Source of the DNA: Actinomycetota bacterium | GTDB taxonomy: Bacteria > Actinomycetota > Acidimicrobiia > Acidimicrobiales > Ilumatobacteraceae | NCBI GenBank assembly: GCA_963169665.1 | Contig: CAUJET010000043.1 | Span: 1 to 64,000 of the forward strand | Direction: 5' to 3' | DNA length: 64,000 nucleotides | In this document: positions 6,658 through 16,857 of the stretch, one piece after another | Position numbering within the stretch: position 1 is the stretch's first letter | Layout: each line of letters opens with the position of its first letter | Position numbers and translations under genes: made by a program | Notes under the pieces: generated by a model | Databases searched by the model: none | The model's input: only the letters and a program-made list of their open reading frames with translations | What the model was told of the DNA's origin: nothing

Positions 6658-8130
6658 ATGAGCGCGTGCCCGTTCCACCAGGTCCTCGACGAGACGCTCC
6701 GCCTCTCCGATCCCTCACCCGACGCGGCCGGCGCCCGACGTGACTTCCCGCTGATGCCCGTCGGCCAGGCCTGCGACATGGGCCGAGCATCTGACGGCAC
6801 GCCACTCATCGACCCGCGCCTGTTCGACTCGGCCGAGTTCCAACGCAACCCGTACCCGTACTACCGCATCATGCGCGACCACCATCCGGTGTTCCACGAC
6901 ACGCTGCACAACTGCTACTGGGTGACGCGCTACGCCGACGTCGAGGCCGGCTATCTCGACGACGAGGGCTTCAACACGATTCCGAAGGGCATGTCGAACG
7001 GCGTGCTGGGCAACACCCAGCTCGAGCTGTCCGGCATCGAGCACCGCCGCCGTCGGAACCTGTACGGCCGCCACCTGGTCGGCCAGGCGCTCGATCGACG
7101 CATCCCGATCATCGAGCGTCTCGCCGCCGAGATGATCGCCAGTTGGTTCGACGGCACCGCGCCCGACGGGTCGATCGTCGTCGACGAGCGCGATCCGTCG
7201 CGACGCAGCGTCGAGCTCGGCAAGGCCTTCGCCAACGAGTTCCCGATCCGCGTGGTGTGCCAGGTGCTGGGCTTCCCCGACGAGGCCCGCTCGCAGTTCT
7301 TCTACTGGTACTCGTCGATGATGAACGGCCTCGGTGGGTCCGAGACGGCTCACCTCGGCATCGGAGCCCGACAGGATCTCGAGGACTACGTGGCCGATCT
7401 GGTGGCGCAGCGGCGCGTGCAGCCCACGTTCTTGTACGACGACGCCGGCGACCCGATCGGCAAGGACATCATCAGCGAGCTGTGCACCACGGTCGTCGAC
7501 GGCGACCTGCTCTCCGCCGAGGAGATCACCTCCAACATCGCCCTCGTCGTCGGCGGCGGAGGCGAGACCACCCGTGGGGCGATCCTCAACATGTGGTACC
7601 TGCTGCTGCAGCACCGCGACCAGTTCGACCGGGTGCGGGCCGACCCGACCCTGTGGGACGCAGCGTTCCACGAGACGCTCCGGTGCGCGAGTTCGATCGG
7701 CGGTCAGCCGCGCCACACCACGTGGGACGTCACGATCCACGGCGTCACGATCCCGGCCGGCTCGCTCGTGAACATGGTCGACTTCTCGGCCAACCACGAC
7801 GACCGGGTGTTCGCGGATCCGGAGCGCTTCGACGTCTTCCGACCCGACCTCCACACCGGCAAGATCATCCGCAGCGGCGTCGATCGCGACGGTCGCCGCA
7901 GCCATATGGCCTTCGGTGTCGGCCCCCACCTGTGCCCGGGAGCGTGGATCAGCCAGCAGGAGTCGGTGCTCGGCTCGAGGGTGCTCGCCGCCGCGCTCGA
8001 CGCCCGCCGCGTCCGGGTCGGCATCGACGTCGACCGCATGCCCGCGGACATCGACGGGACGTCGTTGGCCCCCATCGGGCTCGGCGCGATCCGCTCGCTG
8101 TGGCTCACGCTCGAGGACGCGTCGAGGTGA
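6658..8130 (+). CDS. Cytochrome P450
   Basis: A 490-residue P450. The I-helix motif reads VVGGGGETTRGA (a variant of AGxxTT with acid-Thr-Thr). The K-helix ExxR is ETLR, and the heme-ligand motif FGVGPHLCPG carries the proximal Cys near residue 425. The N-terminus MSACPFHQVLDETLRL is unusual, with a ferredoxin-like CP. Substrate is unknown; the general look is of bacterial steroid/alkane-type CYPs. It is divergent from the ferredoxin and translationally coupled (GTGA overlap) to the heme-less P450-like gene downstream. Confidence 0.93.
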   Translation: MSACPFHQVLDETLRLSDPSPDAAGARRDFPLMPVGQACDMGRASDGTPLIDPRLFDSAEFQRNPYPYYRIMRDHHPVFHDTLHNCYWVTRYADVEAGYLDDEGFNTIPKGMSNGVLGNTQLELSGIEHRRRRNLYGRHLVGQALDRRIPIIERLAAEMIASWFDGTAPDGSIVVDERDPSRRSVELGKAFANEFPIRVVCQVLGFPDEARSQFFYWYSSMMNGLGGSETAHLGIGARQDLEDYVADLVAQRRVQPTFLYDDAGDPIGKDIISELCTTVVDGDLLSAEEITSNIALVVGGGGETTRGAILNMWYLLLQHRDQFDRVRADPTLWDAAFHETLRCASSIGGQPRHTTWDVTIHGVTIPAGSLVNMVDFSANHDDRVFADPERFDVFRPDLHTGKIIRSGVDRDGRRSHMAFGVGPHLCPGAWISQQESVLGSRVLAAALDARRVRVGIDVDRMPADIDGTSLAPIGLGAIRSLWLTLEDASR

Positions 8131-9353
8131 GCGGGTTCCGCACCTACGAGGTGTACCAGCGCACCCGGCCCGGTGAGACCACCGAGTGGATCAAGCCGCG
8201 CCAACTCACCTCCGACGCGTACCTCGTCGACCCGTACCCGCTGGTGGCGATCCTGCGCGAGCACACCCCGTGCTACCGCGACTGGCCGGGGAACGCCTTC
8301 TGGGTCACCCGCTATGACGACGTGACCAGCGTGTTCGTCGACGACGCCAACTTCGAGACCCGGTCGCGGGCGCAGCGGTGCGGGCGTGACGGGTGGGGGC
8401 GAGATCTCGGTGAAGAGCTCGAGGTGCTCCGTTGCCTCGAACGCGCCGCCGATCAACAGGGCGAGGCGATCGCTCGCCGCGTGCTGAGCGAGATGGAAGG
8501 CGACCTCGCCACCGAGGTGTTCGCCCGCCTGCCGTTCGAGCTGCTCTGCACCGCGATGGCCGTCGAACCCACCACCGACCTGGCTCGCACGTACCTGCAT
8601 CTCCGCCGCGCCACCAGCTGGGAGCCGGCGGCACGGCGCGACGGCCTCGACGCGCTCGATCGTCTCGCGGCCTGGGCCGCGCCGTTGCTCGAGCAACGCC
8701 GCAGCGGCGACGGCGACGACCTGCTGTCGATCGTCGCCCGCGTCGGCGGATCCGGCGCCGACCTCGCGATCACCGTGCTGGAGATGGATCACGACACGCT
8801 GCACGGTGTGCTCGCCAACCTCTGGTGTCGACTGCTGACCGAGCCCGAGCTGATGGATGAAGTGCGCGGCGATCCGTTGCTGGTGAAGGCCGCGGTGCTC
8901 GAGACGCTGCGCCACCGCCCGCCGATCGTGTCGGCCGATCGGTTCACCCGGCACGAGGTGGAGCGCTTCGGTCGGCTGCTGCCCGAGGGCGCGCTCGTCC
9001 GCCTCTCCGCCGCCGCCGCCAACCACGACCCGCGAGTGTTCACCGATCCGGACGTGTTCGATCTGCACCGCCGCGACCTGTGCCAACGCGAGCCGCGGGG
9101 TCAGTACCGTGCCGACGGGCTGCCGAGCGGCATCTCGTTCGGCACCGGCGCGCCGTCACGGCACCCGGCTGTGCCGGAGGACCGTCCCCGGTCGCGCTAC
9201 GCGATCGTGCGCGACCTCGCCTCGACGACCACGCGAGCGATCCTCGAGGATGCGCCGCAGCTGCGGCCGGCCGACGGGGCGACGCCGACGTTGCGGTCGC
9301 TGCGCATCGGCGAGCCCCACACCTGCTGGTCGCTGCCCGTCGTGCGCGGCTGA
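8127..9353 (+). CDS. P450-like protein lacking the heme cysteine
   Basis: 408 residues, starting with GTG at 8127 that overlaps the upstream P450 stop by 4 bp. The P450 fold is evident: DPYPLVAILREHTP and FWVTRYDDVTSVF near the N-terminus, ExxR as ETLR, and AAANHDPRVFTDPDVFDLHR before the heme loop. The heme-binding segment is SFGTGAPSRHPAVPEDRPRS, where FGxGxHxCxG is expected, so there is no cysteine. The I-helix has MDHDTLHG in place of AGxDTT. The reading frame is intact over its full length, so this is probably a retained non-heme paralogue partnering the upstream P450, not recent decay. Confidence 0.8.
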   Translation: MSGFRTYEVYQRTRPGETTEWIKPRQLTSDAYLVDPYPLVAILREHTPCYRDWPGNAFWVTRYDDVTSVFVDDANFETRSRAQRCGRDGWGRDLGEELEVLRCLERAADQQGEAIARRVLSEMEGDLATEVFARLPFELLCTAMAVEPTTDLARTYLHLRRATSWEPAARRDGLDALDRLAAWAAPLLEQRRSGDGDDLLSIVARVGGSGADLAITVLEMDHDTLHGVLANLWCRLLTEPELMDEVRGDPLLVKAAVLETLRHRPPIVSADRFTRHEVERFGRLLPEGALVRLSAAAANHDPRVFTDPDVFDLHRRDLCQREPRGQYRADGLPSGISFGTGAPSRHPAVPEDRPRSRYAIVRDLASTTTRAILEDAPQLRPADGATPTLRSLRIGEPHTCWSLPVVRG

Positions 9354-10110: not shown

Positions 10111-10899
10111 TCAGTCGCCGGGTCGCAGCGCGCGAATGGCGGCGATCTGGGCCAGGTACTCCTCGCGGGGCGTGCCGGTGAAGCCCACGTCCCACACCTG
10201 TCCTGTCGGTCCGTCGGGACCCTGATCAACGATCGCGCACGCTGCGTCGGCCATGTCCGACGCCCGCATCGCGCTGTCGGCGAGGCGGGGCGACACGCCG
10301 CGCAGCATCGGCGTGTCGGTGGCGCCGAACGCCAGCCCGTTCACCCGGATCCCGACGGGCGCGAGCTCGGCCGCCCAGCCCTCGGTGAGTCGCCACAGCG
10401 CGAACTTCGTGGCGTCGTAGCCCGTGGCGTATCCGCTGGCGAGCGCGTGCGCCGGCCGGATGTGGTCGGTGATCATGTTGACGACCGTGCCGCCCCCACC
10501 GGCGACCATCACCGGCGCTGCGGCAGCCGTGCAGTGGAACGCCCCGTTCGAACAGGCATCCATCGCCCGGTGCCAGGCCGCCACCTGGCGGTCGTAGTCG
10601 CCGCTCAACAAGCGGGTGTCGCCGAACACCGCGGCGTTGTTCACCAACACGTCGATGCGTCCGGTGCGCGCGACGAGGTCGTCGATCGCCGCCTTCACCG
10701 CGACCGCATCACCGACGTCGCAGGTGGCGGTGGCCATCGACGGCCCGACCAGGTCGGCGGTCTCGGCGTTGCCGGCACCGTCGATGTCGAGGCCGAGCAC
10801 GCACATCCCACGTGCGCCGAACGCCCGACACAGCTCACGACCGATCCCGACGGCCGAGCCGGTGACGACGGCGACGGGTCGGGACTCGGCGGTGTTCAT
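10111..10899 (-). CDS. SDR-family oxidoreductase
   Basis: A 262-residue short-chain dehydrogenase. The cofactor motif is TGSAVGIG and the NNA motif is LVNNAAVFG. The catalytic tyrosine and lysine appear as YDATK, preceded by a conserved-type segment NMITDHIRPAHALASGY. It is the last gene of a three-gene operon; its ATG overlaps the stop of the selenoprotein candidate by 4 bp. Its natural substrate is unknown. Co-transcription with two CMD/AhpD proteins suggests a redox or hydroperoxide-linked role. Confidence 0.88.
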   Translation of the reverse strand: MNTAESRPVAVVTGSAVGIGRELCRAFGARGMCVLGLDIDGAGNAETADLVGPSMATATCDVGDAVAVKAAIDDLVARTGRIDVLVNNAAVFGDTRLLSGDYDRQVAAWHRAMDACSNGAFHCTAAAAPVMVAGGGGTVVNMITDHIRPAHALASGYATGYDATKFALWRLTEGWAAELAPVGIRVNGLAFGATDTPMLRGVSPRLADSAMRASDMADAACAIVDQGPDGPTGQVWDVGFTGTPREEYLAQIAAIRALRPGD

Positions 10900-11393
10900 C
10901 GCACCCAGTTCCCGGCGTCGTCGAAGACCAGATCACTCAGTTCCCCGGGCCGGAGCCACACGTCGGTCCCGAGCGCGACGGGCACCTTCTGCGCGTTCCA
11001 CTTCATGACGTCGAGCGTCAGCTCCACCAGCTGCTCGTCGGTGAAGTGCTCGCGCAGCGCCGCGACGGTGTCGTCGGGCAGCGATGTCGGTTGGGTCATC
11101 AGCGCGTCCGCCAACGCGAGCGCGAGCCGGTGGTGGTGGGGGAACGTGTCGAGGTCGCCCGCGAGCACGTCCGCGATCGTGTCCTCGTCGAGTCCGGCAT
11201 CCCTGGCGACCGCCAGGCGAACGGACATTCAAGTCCCGCAGTCGTGGTGCTTGGCGCAACGCATGCGCACGATCTCGGTGGTCACCGGATCGACCGTCGC
11301 GAGGCGGACGGTCGACGCGGCGATCGCACCCAACGCACGCCGTAGGGTCGGGTCGGCCGTGGTGCCGGCCGCGACTCGTCGTTCGCGTTCCAT
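10896..11393 (-). CDS. AhpD/CMD-family selenoprotein candidate with in-frame TGA
   Basis: Read through an in-frame TGA (11231-11229), this gives 165 residues: MERERRVAAG... up to CAKHHDC-GT-U, then MSVRLAVARDAGL. The residue coded by TGA is number 55 and forms CxxU, the position of the second redox cysteine in AhpD-like carboxymuconolactone-decarboxylase proteins (C-x2-C-x3-R in the related subfamily, from memory). Both halves are in the same frame with no gap and similar coding quality. A SECIS-like hairpin follows the TGA. The likely role is thiol/selenol peroxide or disulfide chemistry. The gene starts 2 bp after the preceding CMD gene, and its end overlaps the SDR by 4 bp. A nonsense mutation of TGC is the alternative. 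Confidence 0.75.
11192..11231 (-). promoter_or_regulatory. Bacterial SECIS-like element directly after the TGA
   Basis: Numbering from U of UGA, a 6-bp stem (CCUGGC 15-20 with GCCAGG 25-30) closes a GGUC tetraloop at 21-24. A lower stem GUCCG (6-10) pairs with CGGAC (36-40) around an internal loop beginning UU. In E. coli fdhF the GGUC of the SECIS apical loop lies at almost the same distance from UGA. Known bSECIS rules ask for an apical loop 16-37 nt after UGA with a G in its first positions; this fits. Confidence 0.7.
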
Positions 11394-11395
11394 CG

Positions 11396-11884
11396 TCAGT
11401 CCTCCATCGATCCGGGCGCGCCGGCGGCGAACAGTCGGTCCCACATCAGTCGGAGCCGGATGCGCTGCTCCACCACCAGCAACGCGCTCACGAACGACTG
11501 CACGCCGTCATCGCCGAGGTGATCGCGTACGGCGGCGACGGTCGCGTCGTCGACCGACGCGACGTCGATCACGTAGTGCTCGGTGAACGCGAGGCACGCG
11601 CGGTCGGCCGCCTCGAAGCGATGGTCGGTCGGCCAGGCGCCGATGGCGTCGAGCAGTTCTGCCGGCGCGTCGCTGTCGGCCGTGCGGGCGTTCGCCTCCA
11701 CCTCGCAGCCGAGCATCGTGGCGATCCGCACCCGGCACAGCTCGAGCAGCCGTGGCGAGACGGCCGCCCAGGCGGCATCGTGCGCGGCGGTCATGTCGGC
11801 GTGGACGTCGCGGTGGCCGGTCGCGCCGGTGCCGAGCACGCGGTCGAGCACCGTGTCGGTCGGCATCGTCCCCAGTGCGCCCAT
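11396..11884 (-). CDS. Carboxymuconolactone decarboxylase (CMD)-family protein
   Basis: About 162 residues of all-helical CMD/AhpD-like sequence. The segment LLELCRVRIATMLGCEVEANAR corresponds to the active-site helix, but it has a single Cys and no CxxC. ACLAFTEHYVIDVASVDDATVAAVRDHLGDDGVQSFV is the typical following helix pair. It is the first gene of a three-gene operon with the CxxU paralogue and an SDR. A pairing of a Cys-poor and a redox-active CMD protein suggests a heteromeric complex; this is inferred only. ATG 11884 is chosen; ATG 11866 is possible. Confidence 0.78.
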   Translation of the reverse strand: MGALGTMPTDTVLDRVLGTGATGHRDVHADMTAAHDAAWAAVSPRLLELCRVRIATMLGCEVEANARTADSDAPAELLDAIGAWPTDHRFEAADRACLAFTEHYVIDVASVDDATVAAVRDHLGDDGVQSFVSALLVVEQRIRLRLMWDRLFAAGAPGSMED

Positions 11885-15167: not shown

Positions 15168-15956
15168 TCAGTCGCGGAGGTCGAGCACCACGGGTGCGTG
15201 ATCGCTGGCCACCTCACCGGCACGCTCGTCCCGGTCGATCCGCACGCGGGTCACCCGGTCGGCGACGGCCGGGGAGCACAGGGCCAGGTCGATGCGCAGA
15301 CCACGGTTCTGCTCGAACTGTCCTGGCCGGTAGCTCCACCACGTGTACACCGCCGGCTCCGGGAGGTGCACCGGGGTCACGTCGACCAGGCCGAGGTCGG
15401 CGAAGGCGGCGACGGCCGCACGTTCGGGCGGGCTCGCGTGCGTTCGGCGGCGCCAGCGGACGGGGTCGTAGATGTCGAGGTCGGTCGGGGCGACGTTGAA
15501 GTCGCCCGTGAGCGCGTGCGGTGCGCCCGAAGGATCGGCCGCAACCGCCCCACGGAGACGTTCGAACCAGACCAGCTTGAACAGGTAGTGCGGATCGTCG
15601 AGCTCTCGGCCGTTCGGCGCGTAGATCGACCACACCCGGATCCCTCCGCAGGTGGCGGCGATCACCCGCGCCTCGTCGAACGGTGGCCGATTGGCGCCTG
15701 GGAAGCCCCGCTGCACGTCGGCCAGGCCCACCCTGCTCAGGATCGCGACGCCGTTCCAGTGGTCGCGTCCGTGGTGGGCCACCTCGTACCCGAGCGCCTC
15801 GTACTCGTCGGTGAACCCCTCGCTCCCGAACAGGGCATCGGTGCACTTCGTCTCCTGGAGCAGGGCGACGTCGGGCCGGTGACGGGCGAGCCAGGCGAGC
15901 ACGCGTGGCTGGCGCGCCCGGATGGAGTTCACGTTCCAGGTGACGATGCGCAGCAC
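15168..15956 (-). CDS. xth: Exodeoxyribonuclease III / AP endonuclease
   Basis: 262 residues of the EEP nuclease fold. The family signatures are all visible: LRIVTWNVNSIRAR at the start, LLQETKC with the Mg-binding Glu, NGVAILSR, YAPNGRE, TGDFNVAPTDLDIYD, and the final SDHAPVV with the catalytic His. The enzyme removes 3' blocking groups and incises abasic sites in base excision repair. A GTG at 15956 gives the conventional N-terminus (V/M)LRIVTWNVNS. It is divergent from the AAC(3) gene. Confidence 0.95.
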   Translation of the reverse strand: MLRIVTWNVNSIRARQPRVLAWLARHRPDVALLQETKCTDALFGSEGFTDEYEALGYEVAHHGRDHWNGVAILSRVGLADVQRGFPGANRPPFDEARVIAATCGGIRVWSIYAPNGRELDDPHYLFKLVWFERLRGAVAADPSGAPHALTGDFNVAPTDLDIYDPVRWRRRTHASPPERAAVAAFADLGLVDVTPVHLPEPAVYTWWSYRPGQFEQNRGLRIDLALCSPAVADRVTRVRIDRDERAGEVASDHAPVVLDLRD

Positions 15957-16035
15957 CCCCGCAGCATGGCGGCCGGACGCACGGCCCGCGCGATCCGACG
16001 ACGGGGCGTGCCACGATCGTCGTAACGTCGGCCAC

Positions 16036-16857
16036 ATGGCCCGTGCAGCCGCAGCCCTGTCGGTGGACGACCTCGCCGCCGCGCTCGCGCGGCTCGGGGT
16101 CCGACCTGGCGACGTGCTCATGGTGCATGCCTCGCTGCGCAGGATCGGACCGGTCGACGGTCGCGCCGCCGGGGTGGTGGCCGCGATCGACCGCGCCCTC
16201 GGTTCGGAGGGAACCTGGATGATGACGCTCGGTGCCGACGACGAATGGTCGTGGGTCAACGAGCGGCCCGAGGACGAGCGGCCCGCGCTGCTGGCCGATG
16301 CCGTGCCGTTCGACGTGCTGGCGACGCCGGCCGACGAGGACATCGGTGTGCTGGCCGAGGTGTTCCGCACCACGCCGGGCACGATCGTGAGCGATCACCC
16401 GGAGGGCCGCATGGGTGCCCGTGGCCGGCTCGCCGCAGCGTTCACCGAGCACGTGCCGTGGGACCACTACTACGGGCCCGGTTCGCCGCTCGATCGGTTC
16501 GTCGAGGCCGGCGGACGGGTGCTGCGACTCGGTGCCGACCTCGACACCGTGACCCTCCTCCACCTCGCCGAGTACCTGGTGGAGCTGCCCGCCAAGCGCC
16601 AGGTCCGACGACACCGCATGGTGTCGACGGCCCAGGGGCCACAGCTGCGCGTGGTCGAGTGCCTCGACGACAGCGACGGGATCGTCGAACGCGACGACCC
16701 GGATGCGGAGGACTACTTCGCCTCGATCACGCGGGACTACCTGACGACGGATCGCGCCGCGCTCGGTGCCGTCGGCGGTGCCACGGCCGAACTGCTCGAC
16801 GGCCCCGATCTCGTCGCGTTCGCCGTCGACTGGATGGGGACCCACCTCGCCCGGTAG
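16036..16857 (+). CDS. AAC(3)-family N-acetyltransferase
   Basis: 273 residues of the aminoglycoside 3-N-acetyltransferase (antibiotic_NAT) family. Family segments are GVRPGDVLMVHASLRRIG, FRTTPGTIVSDHPEGRMGAR, YYGPGSPLDRFVEAGGRVLRLG and the later histidine-containing HRMV region. Members acetylate aminoglycosides or other amines using acetyl-CoA. Chromosomal relatives are often not resistance determinants. There is no mobile element next to it, so a housekeeping or unknown substrate is more likely. The xth gene is divergent. Confidence 0.87.
   Translation: MARAAAALSVDDLAAALARLGVRPGDVLMVHASLRRIGPVDGRAAGVVAAIDRALGSEGTWMMTLGADDEWSWVNERPEDERPALLADAVPFDVLATPADEDIGVLAEVFRTTPGTIVSDHPEGRMGARGRLAAAFTEHVPWDHYYGPGSPLDRFVEAGGRVLRLGADLDTVTLLHLAEYLVELPAKRQVRRHRMVSTAQGPQLRVVECLDDSDGIVERDDPDAEDYFASITRDYLTTDRAALGAVGGATAELLDGPDLVAFAVDWMGTHLAR

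What the first reader, a model, noticed from the sequence alone, without database searches (positions are those of the whole stretch)
10896..11393. AhpD/CMD-family selenoprotein: in-frame TGA in a CxxU motif with a SECIS-like hairpin
Seen: two short frames are the same frame split only by TGA at 11231-11229, giving HHDC-GT-U-MSVR where AhpD relatives have C-x2-C. Six base pairs close a GGUC loop 17 nt after the TGA, plus a lower 5-bp stem. Known: bacterial SECIS lie directly after UGA with an apical loop containing G; AhpD-like selenoproteins have been reported. Inferred: this gene encodes a 165-residue selenoprotein in an operon with a second CMD protein and an SDR. Automatic annotation would split it into two truncated genes.
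Basis: partly seen in the sequence, partly recalled or inferred. Interest (0 to 1): 0.87.

Follow-up and report, generated by a model that had tools for sequence, protein, structure and literature searches.

The report
Selenocysteine AhpD/CMD protein with inactive partner
A gene that software would split at a stop codon most likely encodes a small redox enzyme carrying the rare amino acid selenocysteine; it always travels with a related gene that has lost the redox motif, and it belongs to a large, poorly catalogued set of such proteins in aquatic actinobacteria.

Summary
Window 11393-10896 (minus strand) is one 165-residue CMD/AhpD-like frame interrupted only by TGA at 11231-11229, in C52-G-T-U55.

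The selenocysteine reading passes every test I could run. The genome has selA, selB, selD, tRNA-Sec and a second, textbook selenoprotein (formate dehydrogenase). Of 49 homologues readable at this column, 40 have TGA, 9 have Cys, none anything else. The hairpin after UGA covaries strongly (39 distinct sequences) and is much weaker in Cys homologues.

Three additions. (2) The upstream "second CMD" is a homologue without CxxC, present just upstream in nearly every relative, usually with a 4-nt ATGA overlap; the SDR is only local. (3) The invariant AhpD relay His is an invariant Arg here.

CxxU AhpD/CMD selenoproteins are already known, so this is a new, unnamed subfamily of a known kind, far below the NCBIfam cut-offs. 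Acidimicrobiales relatives show many more: 20 of 20 sampled single-TGA CMD frames are CxxU. The enzyme's substrate is inferred, not shown.

The parts
10899..11393 (-). Sec-CMD: CMD/AhpD-like selenoprotein, 165 residues, C52-x2-U55 (stop codon TGA at 10898-10896)
   Evidence: Open when TGA is read as Sec; Pfam CMD PF02627 28.4 bits over cut-off 23; 40 TGA and 9 Cys homologues; predicted fold matches AhpD-like PDB entries 2gmy, 7xw1, 2ijc
11229..11231 (-). in-frame UGA, predicted Sec codon 55
   Evidence: TGA or Cys codon in all readable homologues; aligns with Cys51 of P. aeruginosa PA0269
11202..11217 (-). bSECIS upper hairpin CCUGGC-GGUC-GCCAGG, 11 nt after the UGA (loop starts 17 nt after it)
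   Evidence: Covariation: 59 cells with double-sided changes against 16.3 in shuffles, 0/500; MFE fold of the window
11399..11884 (-). CMD-A: partner gene upstream, CMD/AhpD homologue without CxxC (stop codon at 11398-11396)
   Evidence: Found immediately upstream in nearly all Sec loci; profile-profile match to the Sec-CMD family, prob 97.9; matches PA0269, E 4.7e-9; no CxxC in 44 aligned members
10111..10899 (-). SDR-family oxidoreductase; its ATG overlaps the Sec-CMD stop (ATGA at 10899-10896)
   Evidence: PF00106 E 4e-36; downstream of the pair only in the close relatives L073, L074, L080

Best explanation
The frame is a genuine selenoprotein gene. SelB binds the GGUC-tipped hairpin just after the UGA and delivers Sec-tRNA-Sec, giving a 165-residue AhpD-like protein with a C-x2-U redox site (supported by comparative evidence, not by experiment). 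It is translated from a coupled two-gene unit with CMD-A, an upstream homologue that has lost the CxxC, and the two most likely form a hetero-oligomer in which CMD-A is structural or substrate-binding and Sec-CMD is catalytic (inferred). Sec55 is the probable attacking residue (as the second cysteine, Cys133, is discussed for AhpD) and Cys52 the resolving one, forming a selenenylsulfide recycled by a cellular thiol; the most likely activity is reduction of organic (hydro)peroxides or a related thiol-dependent reduction (inferred from fold and motif; the substrate is unknown).
For: Machinery: selD 312 bits, selA 391, selB 272, all over cut-off; tRNA-Sec 64 bits, UCA anticodon; selA and selB adjacent. 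Another canonical selenoprotein in the genome: formate dehydrogenase SCNRTUHAPS with a GGUC-type hairpin. Column 55 is TGA in 40 and Cys in 9 of 49 readable homologues. Hairpin covariation and weaker pairing in Cys homologues (mean MFE -9.3 against -4.2 kcal/mol). selA is over cut-off in 14 of 16 genomes with the TGA form (the two lacking it are 78% and 83% complete) and 2 of 10 with only non-TGA relatives among the hits chosen, Fisher p = 0.001. In 38 of 40 TGA loci the codon after TGA is not ATG/GTG/TTG, so reinitiation cannot explain the family. Partner: upstream in 38 of 40 TGA loci (the other two: one contig edge, one not called by ORF search but hit by tblastn); 30 with a 4-nt overlap.
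Against: No protein data. Fold of the single window sequence is only z = -1.83. The invariant AhpD relay His is Arg here, so peroxidase chemistry may differ. The hetero-oligomer was not modelled. Two close relatives, and the window itself, do have an ATG right after the TGA.
Confidence: 0.95

Rival explanations
1. The TGA is a true stop and there are two genes: a 71-aa upstream product and a 110-aa product restarted at the ATG directly after the TGA.
For: In the window TGA is followed at once by ATG, and the two ORFs are listed separately.
Against: 38 of 40 TGA homologues have no ATG/GTG/TTG there (CTG, CGT, AAG, CTC...). Protein similarity runs through the TGA in all of them and Cys homologues are uninterrupted at that column. 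The stop is always TGA, never TAA or TAG, in the matches listed.
Confidence: 0.02
2. Pseudogene or sequencing error: the TGA is a recent nonsense mutation or base-call error of a CxxC gene.
For: The source is a draft, metagenome-like assembly of 230 contigs.
Against: The same TGA is in 40 loci of independent assemblies, down to about 50% protein identity, with a covarying hairpin behind it.
Confidence: 0.01
3. The UGA is read as another residue (reassigned code, TGA = Trp or Cys) rather than Sec.
For: Cys homologues have Cys at this column.
Against: UGA is a normal terminator in the family (21 of 39 readable TGA genes end in TGA), including this one; the genome has a complete Sec system.
Confidence: 0.01
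4. Alternative function: the pair is not a peroxidase but a substrate-specific enzyme in catabolism (for example a reductive dehalogenase-like or CoA/ketone pathway step), fitting the SDR, P450 and luciferase-like genes around it.
For: SDR in the same operon; two P450-like genes and a luciferase-like monooxygenase nearby; P450s near several relatives; the solved AhpD-fold enzyme Bmp8 is a debrominase; His to Arg change in the relay.
Against: Apart from CMD-A no neighbour is conserved across the family; such genes are common in these genomes, so proximity may be chance.
Confidence: 0.3

Closest known systems
AhpD-like and CMD-domain CxxU selenoproteins (Sargasso Sea set, PMC1088965; catalogue in PMC13188914: TIGR01926, PF02627, NF041047, NF041238)
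   Same: CMD/AhpD fold, Sec at the second position of CxxC, bSECIS directly after the UGA
   Different: Far below every equivalog or subfamily cut-off scanned; Arg instead of His four residues after Sec; fixed partner gene without CxxC. Some marine relatives may have been counted in those sets without being separated; I could not compare the sequences.
NCBIfam NF053654 GroundWater_YciW, YciW-related (seleno)protein
   Same: Best-scoring curated family for both Sec-CMD and CMD-A (39.9 and 17.5 bits)
   Different: Cut-off is 310 bits; not a member
P. aeruginosa PA0269 (2ijc, 2o4d, 7xw1) and M. tuberculosis AhpD
   Same: Fold, Glu and CxxC positions (E40, C52, U55 align with Glu36, Cys48, Cys51)
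   Different: Sec for the second Cys; Thr54 for Tyr50; Arg59 for the His55 reported as invariant
Sestrin2 (PMC4674687)
   Same: One catalytic AhpD-like unit paired with one AhpD-like unit that has lost the motif
   Different: Fused in one eukaryotic chain, single Cys, catalytic half first; here two genes, inactive one first. Analogy of layout, not a claim of descent
E. coli fdhF-type bSECIS
   Same: Short stem with GGUC-type tip, and the same kind of hairpin in this genome's own Sec-FDH
   Different: Most relatives have AGUU instead of GGUC

Membership tests
bacterial selenoproteins | complete Sec machinery in the genome (selA, selB, selD, tRNA-Sec) | tested here: met
bacterial selenoproteins | in-frame UGA aligned with Cys in homologues | tested here: met
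   40 TGA, 9 TGC/TGT
bacterial selenoproteins | bSECIS: 3-9 nt apical loop, 4-16 bp stem, G in the first two loop positions, UGA to loop 16-37 nt (model as given in PMC13188914) | tested here: met
   6-bp stem, GGUC loop, 17 nt; conserved with covariation
bacterial selenoproteins | Sec present in the protein | not testable with these tools
   needs 75Se labelling or mass spectrometry
Pfam CMD (PF02627) | score over the gathering cut-off | tested here: met
   28.4 against 23 bits
AhpD-like peroxidases | Glu and CxxC (or CxxU) of the proton relay | tested here: met
   E40, C52, U/C55 invariant in 42 sequences; alignment to PA0269
AhpD-like peroxidases | His four residues after the second Cys (reported invariant, PMC3141380) | tested here: not met
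   Arg59 invariant in 42 sequences
AhpD-like peroxidases | peroxidase activity | not testable with these tools
   no assay
NCBIfam NF053654, NF041047, TIGR01926, TIGR00778 | score over the curated cut-off | tested here: not met
   39.9/310, 23/110, 14.5/81.8, 18/27.8 bits

The most novel reading that the evidence does not exclude
Sec-CMD and CMD-A form a new type of split, Sestrin-like hetero-oligomeric selenoenzyme, and it is one branch of a large, mostly uncatalogued radiation of CMD selenoproteins in aerobic aquatic Acidimicrobiales, with several independently shaped SECIS hairpins and a relay in which Arg has replaced His.
Probability: 0.5. Interest if true: 0.6.

Novelty: new variant of a known kind. 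Interest (0 to 1): 0.5.

Why it matters
It adds a well-supported selenoprotein subfamily, missed by the curated models tested, in abundant freshwater and marine actinobacteria, where the reviewed selenoproteome literature speaks mostly of anaerobes. About half of the CMD-like matches listed in an order-wide scan carry one in-frame TGA, and all 20 sampled were CxxU, so standard annotation probably truncates many redox genes in these genomes. The conserved catalytic plus motif-less pairing is directly testable and resembles the layout of Sestrins.

Tried and rejected
The lower 5-bp stem as part of the SECIS: not conserved (58.5% of cells paired). The SDR as a fixed part of the system: downstream only in close relatives. 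Membership in named NCBIfam (seleno)protein families: all far below cut-off. P450, luciferase-like or SelO neighbours as functional clues: not recurrent enough. Searching the genome with the covariance model for other genes with this SECIS: only the two CMD genes score well, the rest is at chance level; this misses selenoproteins with other hairpins, such as the formate dehydrogenase. Literature searches for selenocysteine in Acidimicrobiia or Ilumatobacter gave nothing relevant. An attempt to test Sec as ancestral or derived: the tree needs 3 changes and has open forks, so direction is unresolved, though the window's 23-sequence Sec clade is well supported (97/91).

Full report
What is in the sequence. 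On the minus strand, 11393 to 10896 is one frame broken only by TGA at 11231-11229. Read with TGA as Sec it is a 165-residue protein with the motif HHDC-GT-U-MSVR. The gene ends in TGA inside the ATGA that starts the SDR gene (10899). Upstream, ending at 11396, lies a second gene of similar length.

Family. The protein matches Pfam CMD (28.4 bits, cut-off 23). Its best NCBIfam match is NF053654, a YciW-related (seleno)protein, at 39.9 bits against a cut-off of 310; GSU3128 (NF041047), TIGR01926 and TIGR00778 are also below cut-off. An AlphaFold2 model built on 42 relatives (mean pLDDT 84.7) matches the AhpD-like structures 2gmy, 7xw1 and 2ijc, and the profile finds the same entries by sequence.

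Sec machinery. The genome holding the window (5.8 Mb, 98% complete) has selD, selA and selB over their cut-offs, selA and selB adjacent on one contig, and a tRNA-Sec with UCA anticodon on the same contig. It also has a formate dehydrogenase alpha subunit with in-frame TGA at the canonical place (SCNRTUHAPS) followed by GTGGTC-GGTCT-GGCCAC, again a GGUC-type tip. That the tip matches is my reading of the sequence; the program's minimum-energy fold of that stretch was a different one.

The Sec column. A scan of 298 genomes of the order gave 106 with a match, and a scan of named genomes gave 51 loci, nearly all uncultured Acidimicrobiia-type actinobacteria, including Ilumatobacteraceae. At column 55, 40 have TGA, 9 have TGC or TGT; one locus is cut off before the column and one is a spurious match. 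The Cys forms are in Solirubrobacterales, Prauserella, Woeseiaceae and Lysobacterales. In 38 of 40 TGA loci the next codon is not ATG, GTG or TTG, which rules out reinitiation as the general explanation. selA is present over cut-off in 14 of 16 genomes with the TGA form and in 2 of 10 whose listed best match had no TGA (these genomes were picked from the hit list, so the p of 0.001 is indicative only).

The hairpin. In 39 distinct sequences the stem starts 11 nt after UGA at fixed spacing. 96% of cells pair, 59 cells show double-sided changes (shuffles 16.3), covariation 0.566 against 0.227, 0 of 500 shuffles; sliding the partner by 1 to 3 columns destroys it. The two outer letters of the tetraloop covary as A-U or G-C, leaving a G-U (once G-G) tip, which fits the bSECIS rule of a G at the start of the apical loop (PMC13188914). 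The lower stem does not hold across the family. Cys homologues pair less well (mean MFE -4.2 against -9.3 kcal/mol), although a few of them show 5 or 6 of 7 possible pairs, as expected of GC-rich DNA. In Sec proteins residues 61-63 are A-V-A, the codons of the hairpin tip, while Cys homologues vary there.

The partner. The upstream protein, here called CMD-A, is homologous to Sec-CMD (hhalign probability 97.9) and to PA0269 (E 4.7e-9), and its model (pLDDT 93.6) has the same fold, but none of the 44 aligned members keeps CxxC. It is immediately upstream in nearly all Sec loci and all Cys loci inspected; 30 of 40 Sec and 6 of 9 Cys loci overlap by 4 nt. The second Sec-CMD of this genome (contig C205) also has a CMD-A-like gene directly upstream. 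This pairing is the most constant feature after the CxxU. The layout, one catalytic and one motif-less AhpD unit, is that of Sestrin2 (PMC4674687), there fused in one chain.

Active site. E40, C52, U/C55 and R59 are invariant in 42 sequences. They align with Glu36, Cys48, Cys51 and His55 of PA0269. His55 was reported invariant in AhpD-like proteins (PMC3141380), so the Arg is a real departure and warns against assuming the AhpD reaction.

Wider picture. In one search about 80 of about 150 listed CMD-like matches have exactly one in-frame stop, always TGA (counted by hand from the table). I fetched 20 of these from other branches: all 20 are CxxU, several with quite different hairpins (for example GCATC-GGC-GATGC). 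So Acidimicrobiales hold a radiation of Sec-CMD proteins, of which this is one clade.

What is known and what is new. CxxU AhpD-like and CMD-domain selenoproteins were described from the Sargasso Sea in 2005 (PMC1088965) and are in the 2026 catalogue (PMC13188914). The kind is therefore known. What I did not find described is this subfamily, its fixed motif-less partner, the Arg for His change, and the extent in Acidimicrobiales. I could not compare with the 2005 sequences, so some marine members may already be counted there.

Confidence. That this is a selenoprotein: about 0.95, from comparative evidence alone. That CMD-A and Sec-CMD form a complex: about 0.7. That the activity is peroxide reduction: about 0.5. 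These are judgements, not computed values.

Noticed in passing
window 8178-9350 (+): P450-like protein without the heme-binding Cys: FGTGAPSRHPAVP where FGxGxHxCxG is expected. Homologues in L080 and L101 (52-58% identical) lack it too, and each follows a canonical P450 (window 6658-8127). A conserved, possibly non-heme P450 partner.
   Followed up: partly
G000:C205:48590-48988 (L059:8519-9031): Second Sec-CMD of the same genome (DCGYURNVR) with a GGTC-tipped hairpin and its own CMD-A-like gene directly upstream (L059:8076-8519).
   Followed up: partly
G000:C215:35146-37032 (L129): Formate dehydrogenase alpha subunit with in-frame TGA at the canonical Sec position, followed by a GGUC-type hairpin.
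   Followed up: partly
L133-L152: Twenty further CMD-like genes of the same order, all with TGA in a CxxU motif, and with several unrelated-looking hairpins after it.
   Followed up: partly
window 15925-16854 (+): Protein matching aminoglycoside 3-N-acetyltransferase (PF02522, E 1.5e-49); a second such protein lies near selAB (L057:12235-13242, by resemblance only).
   Followed up: no
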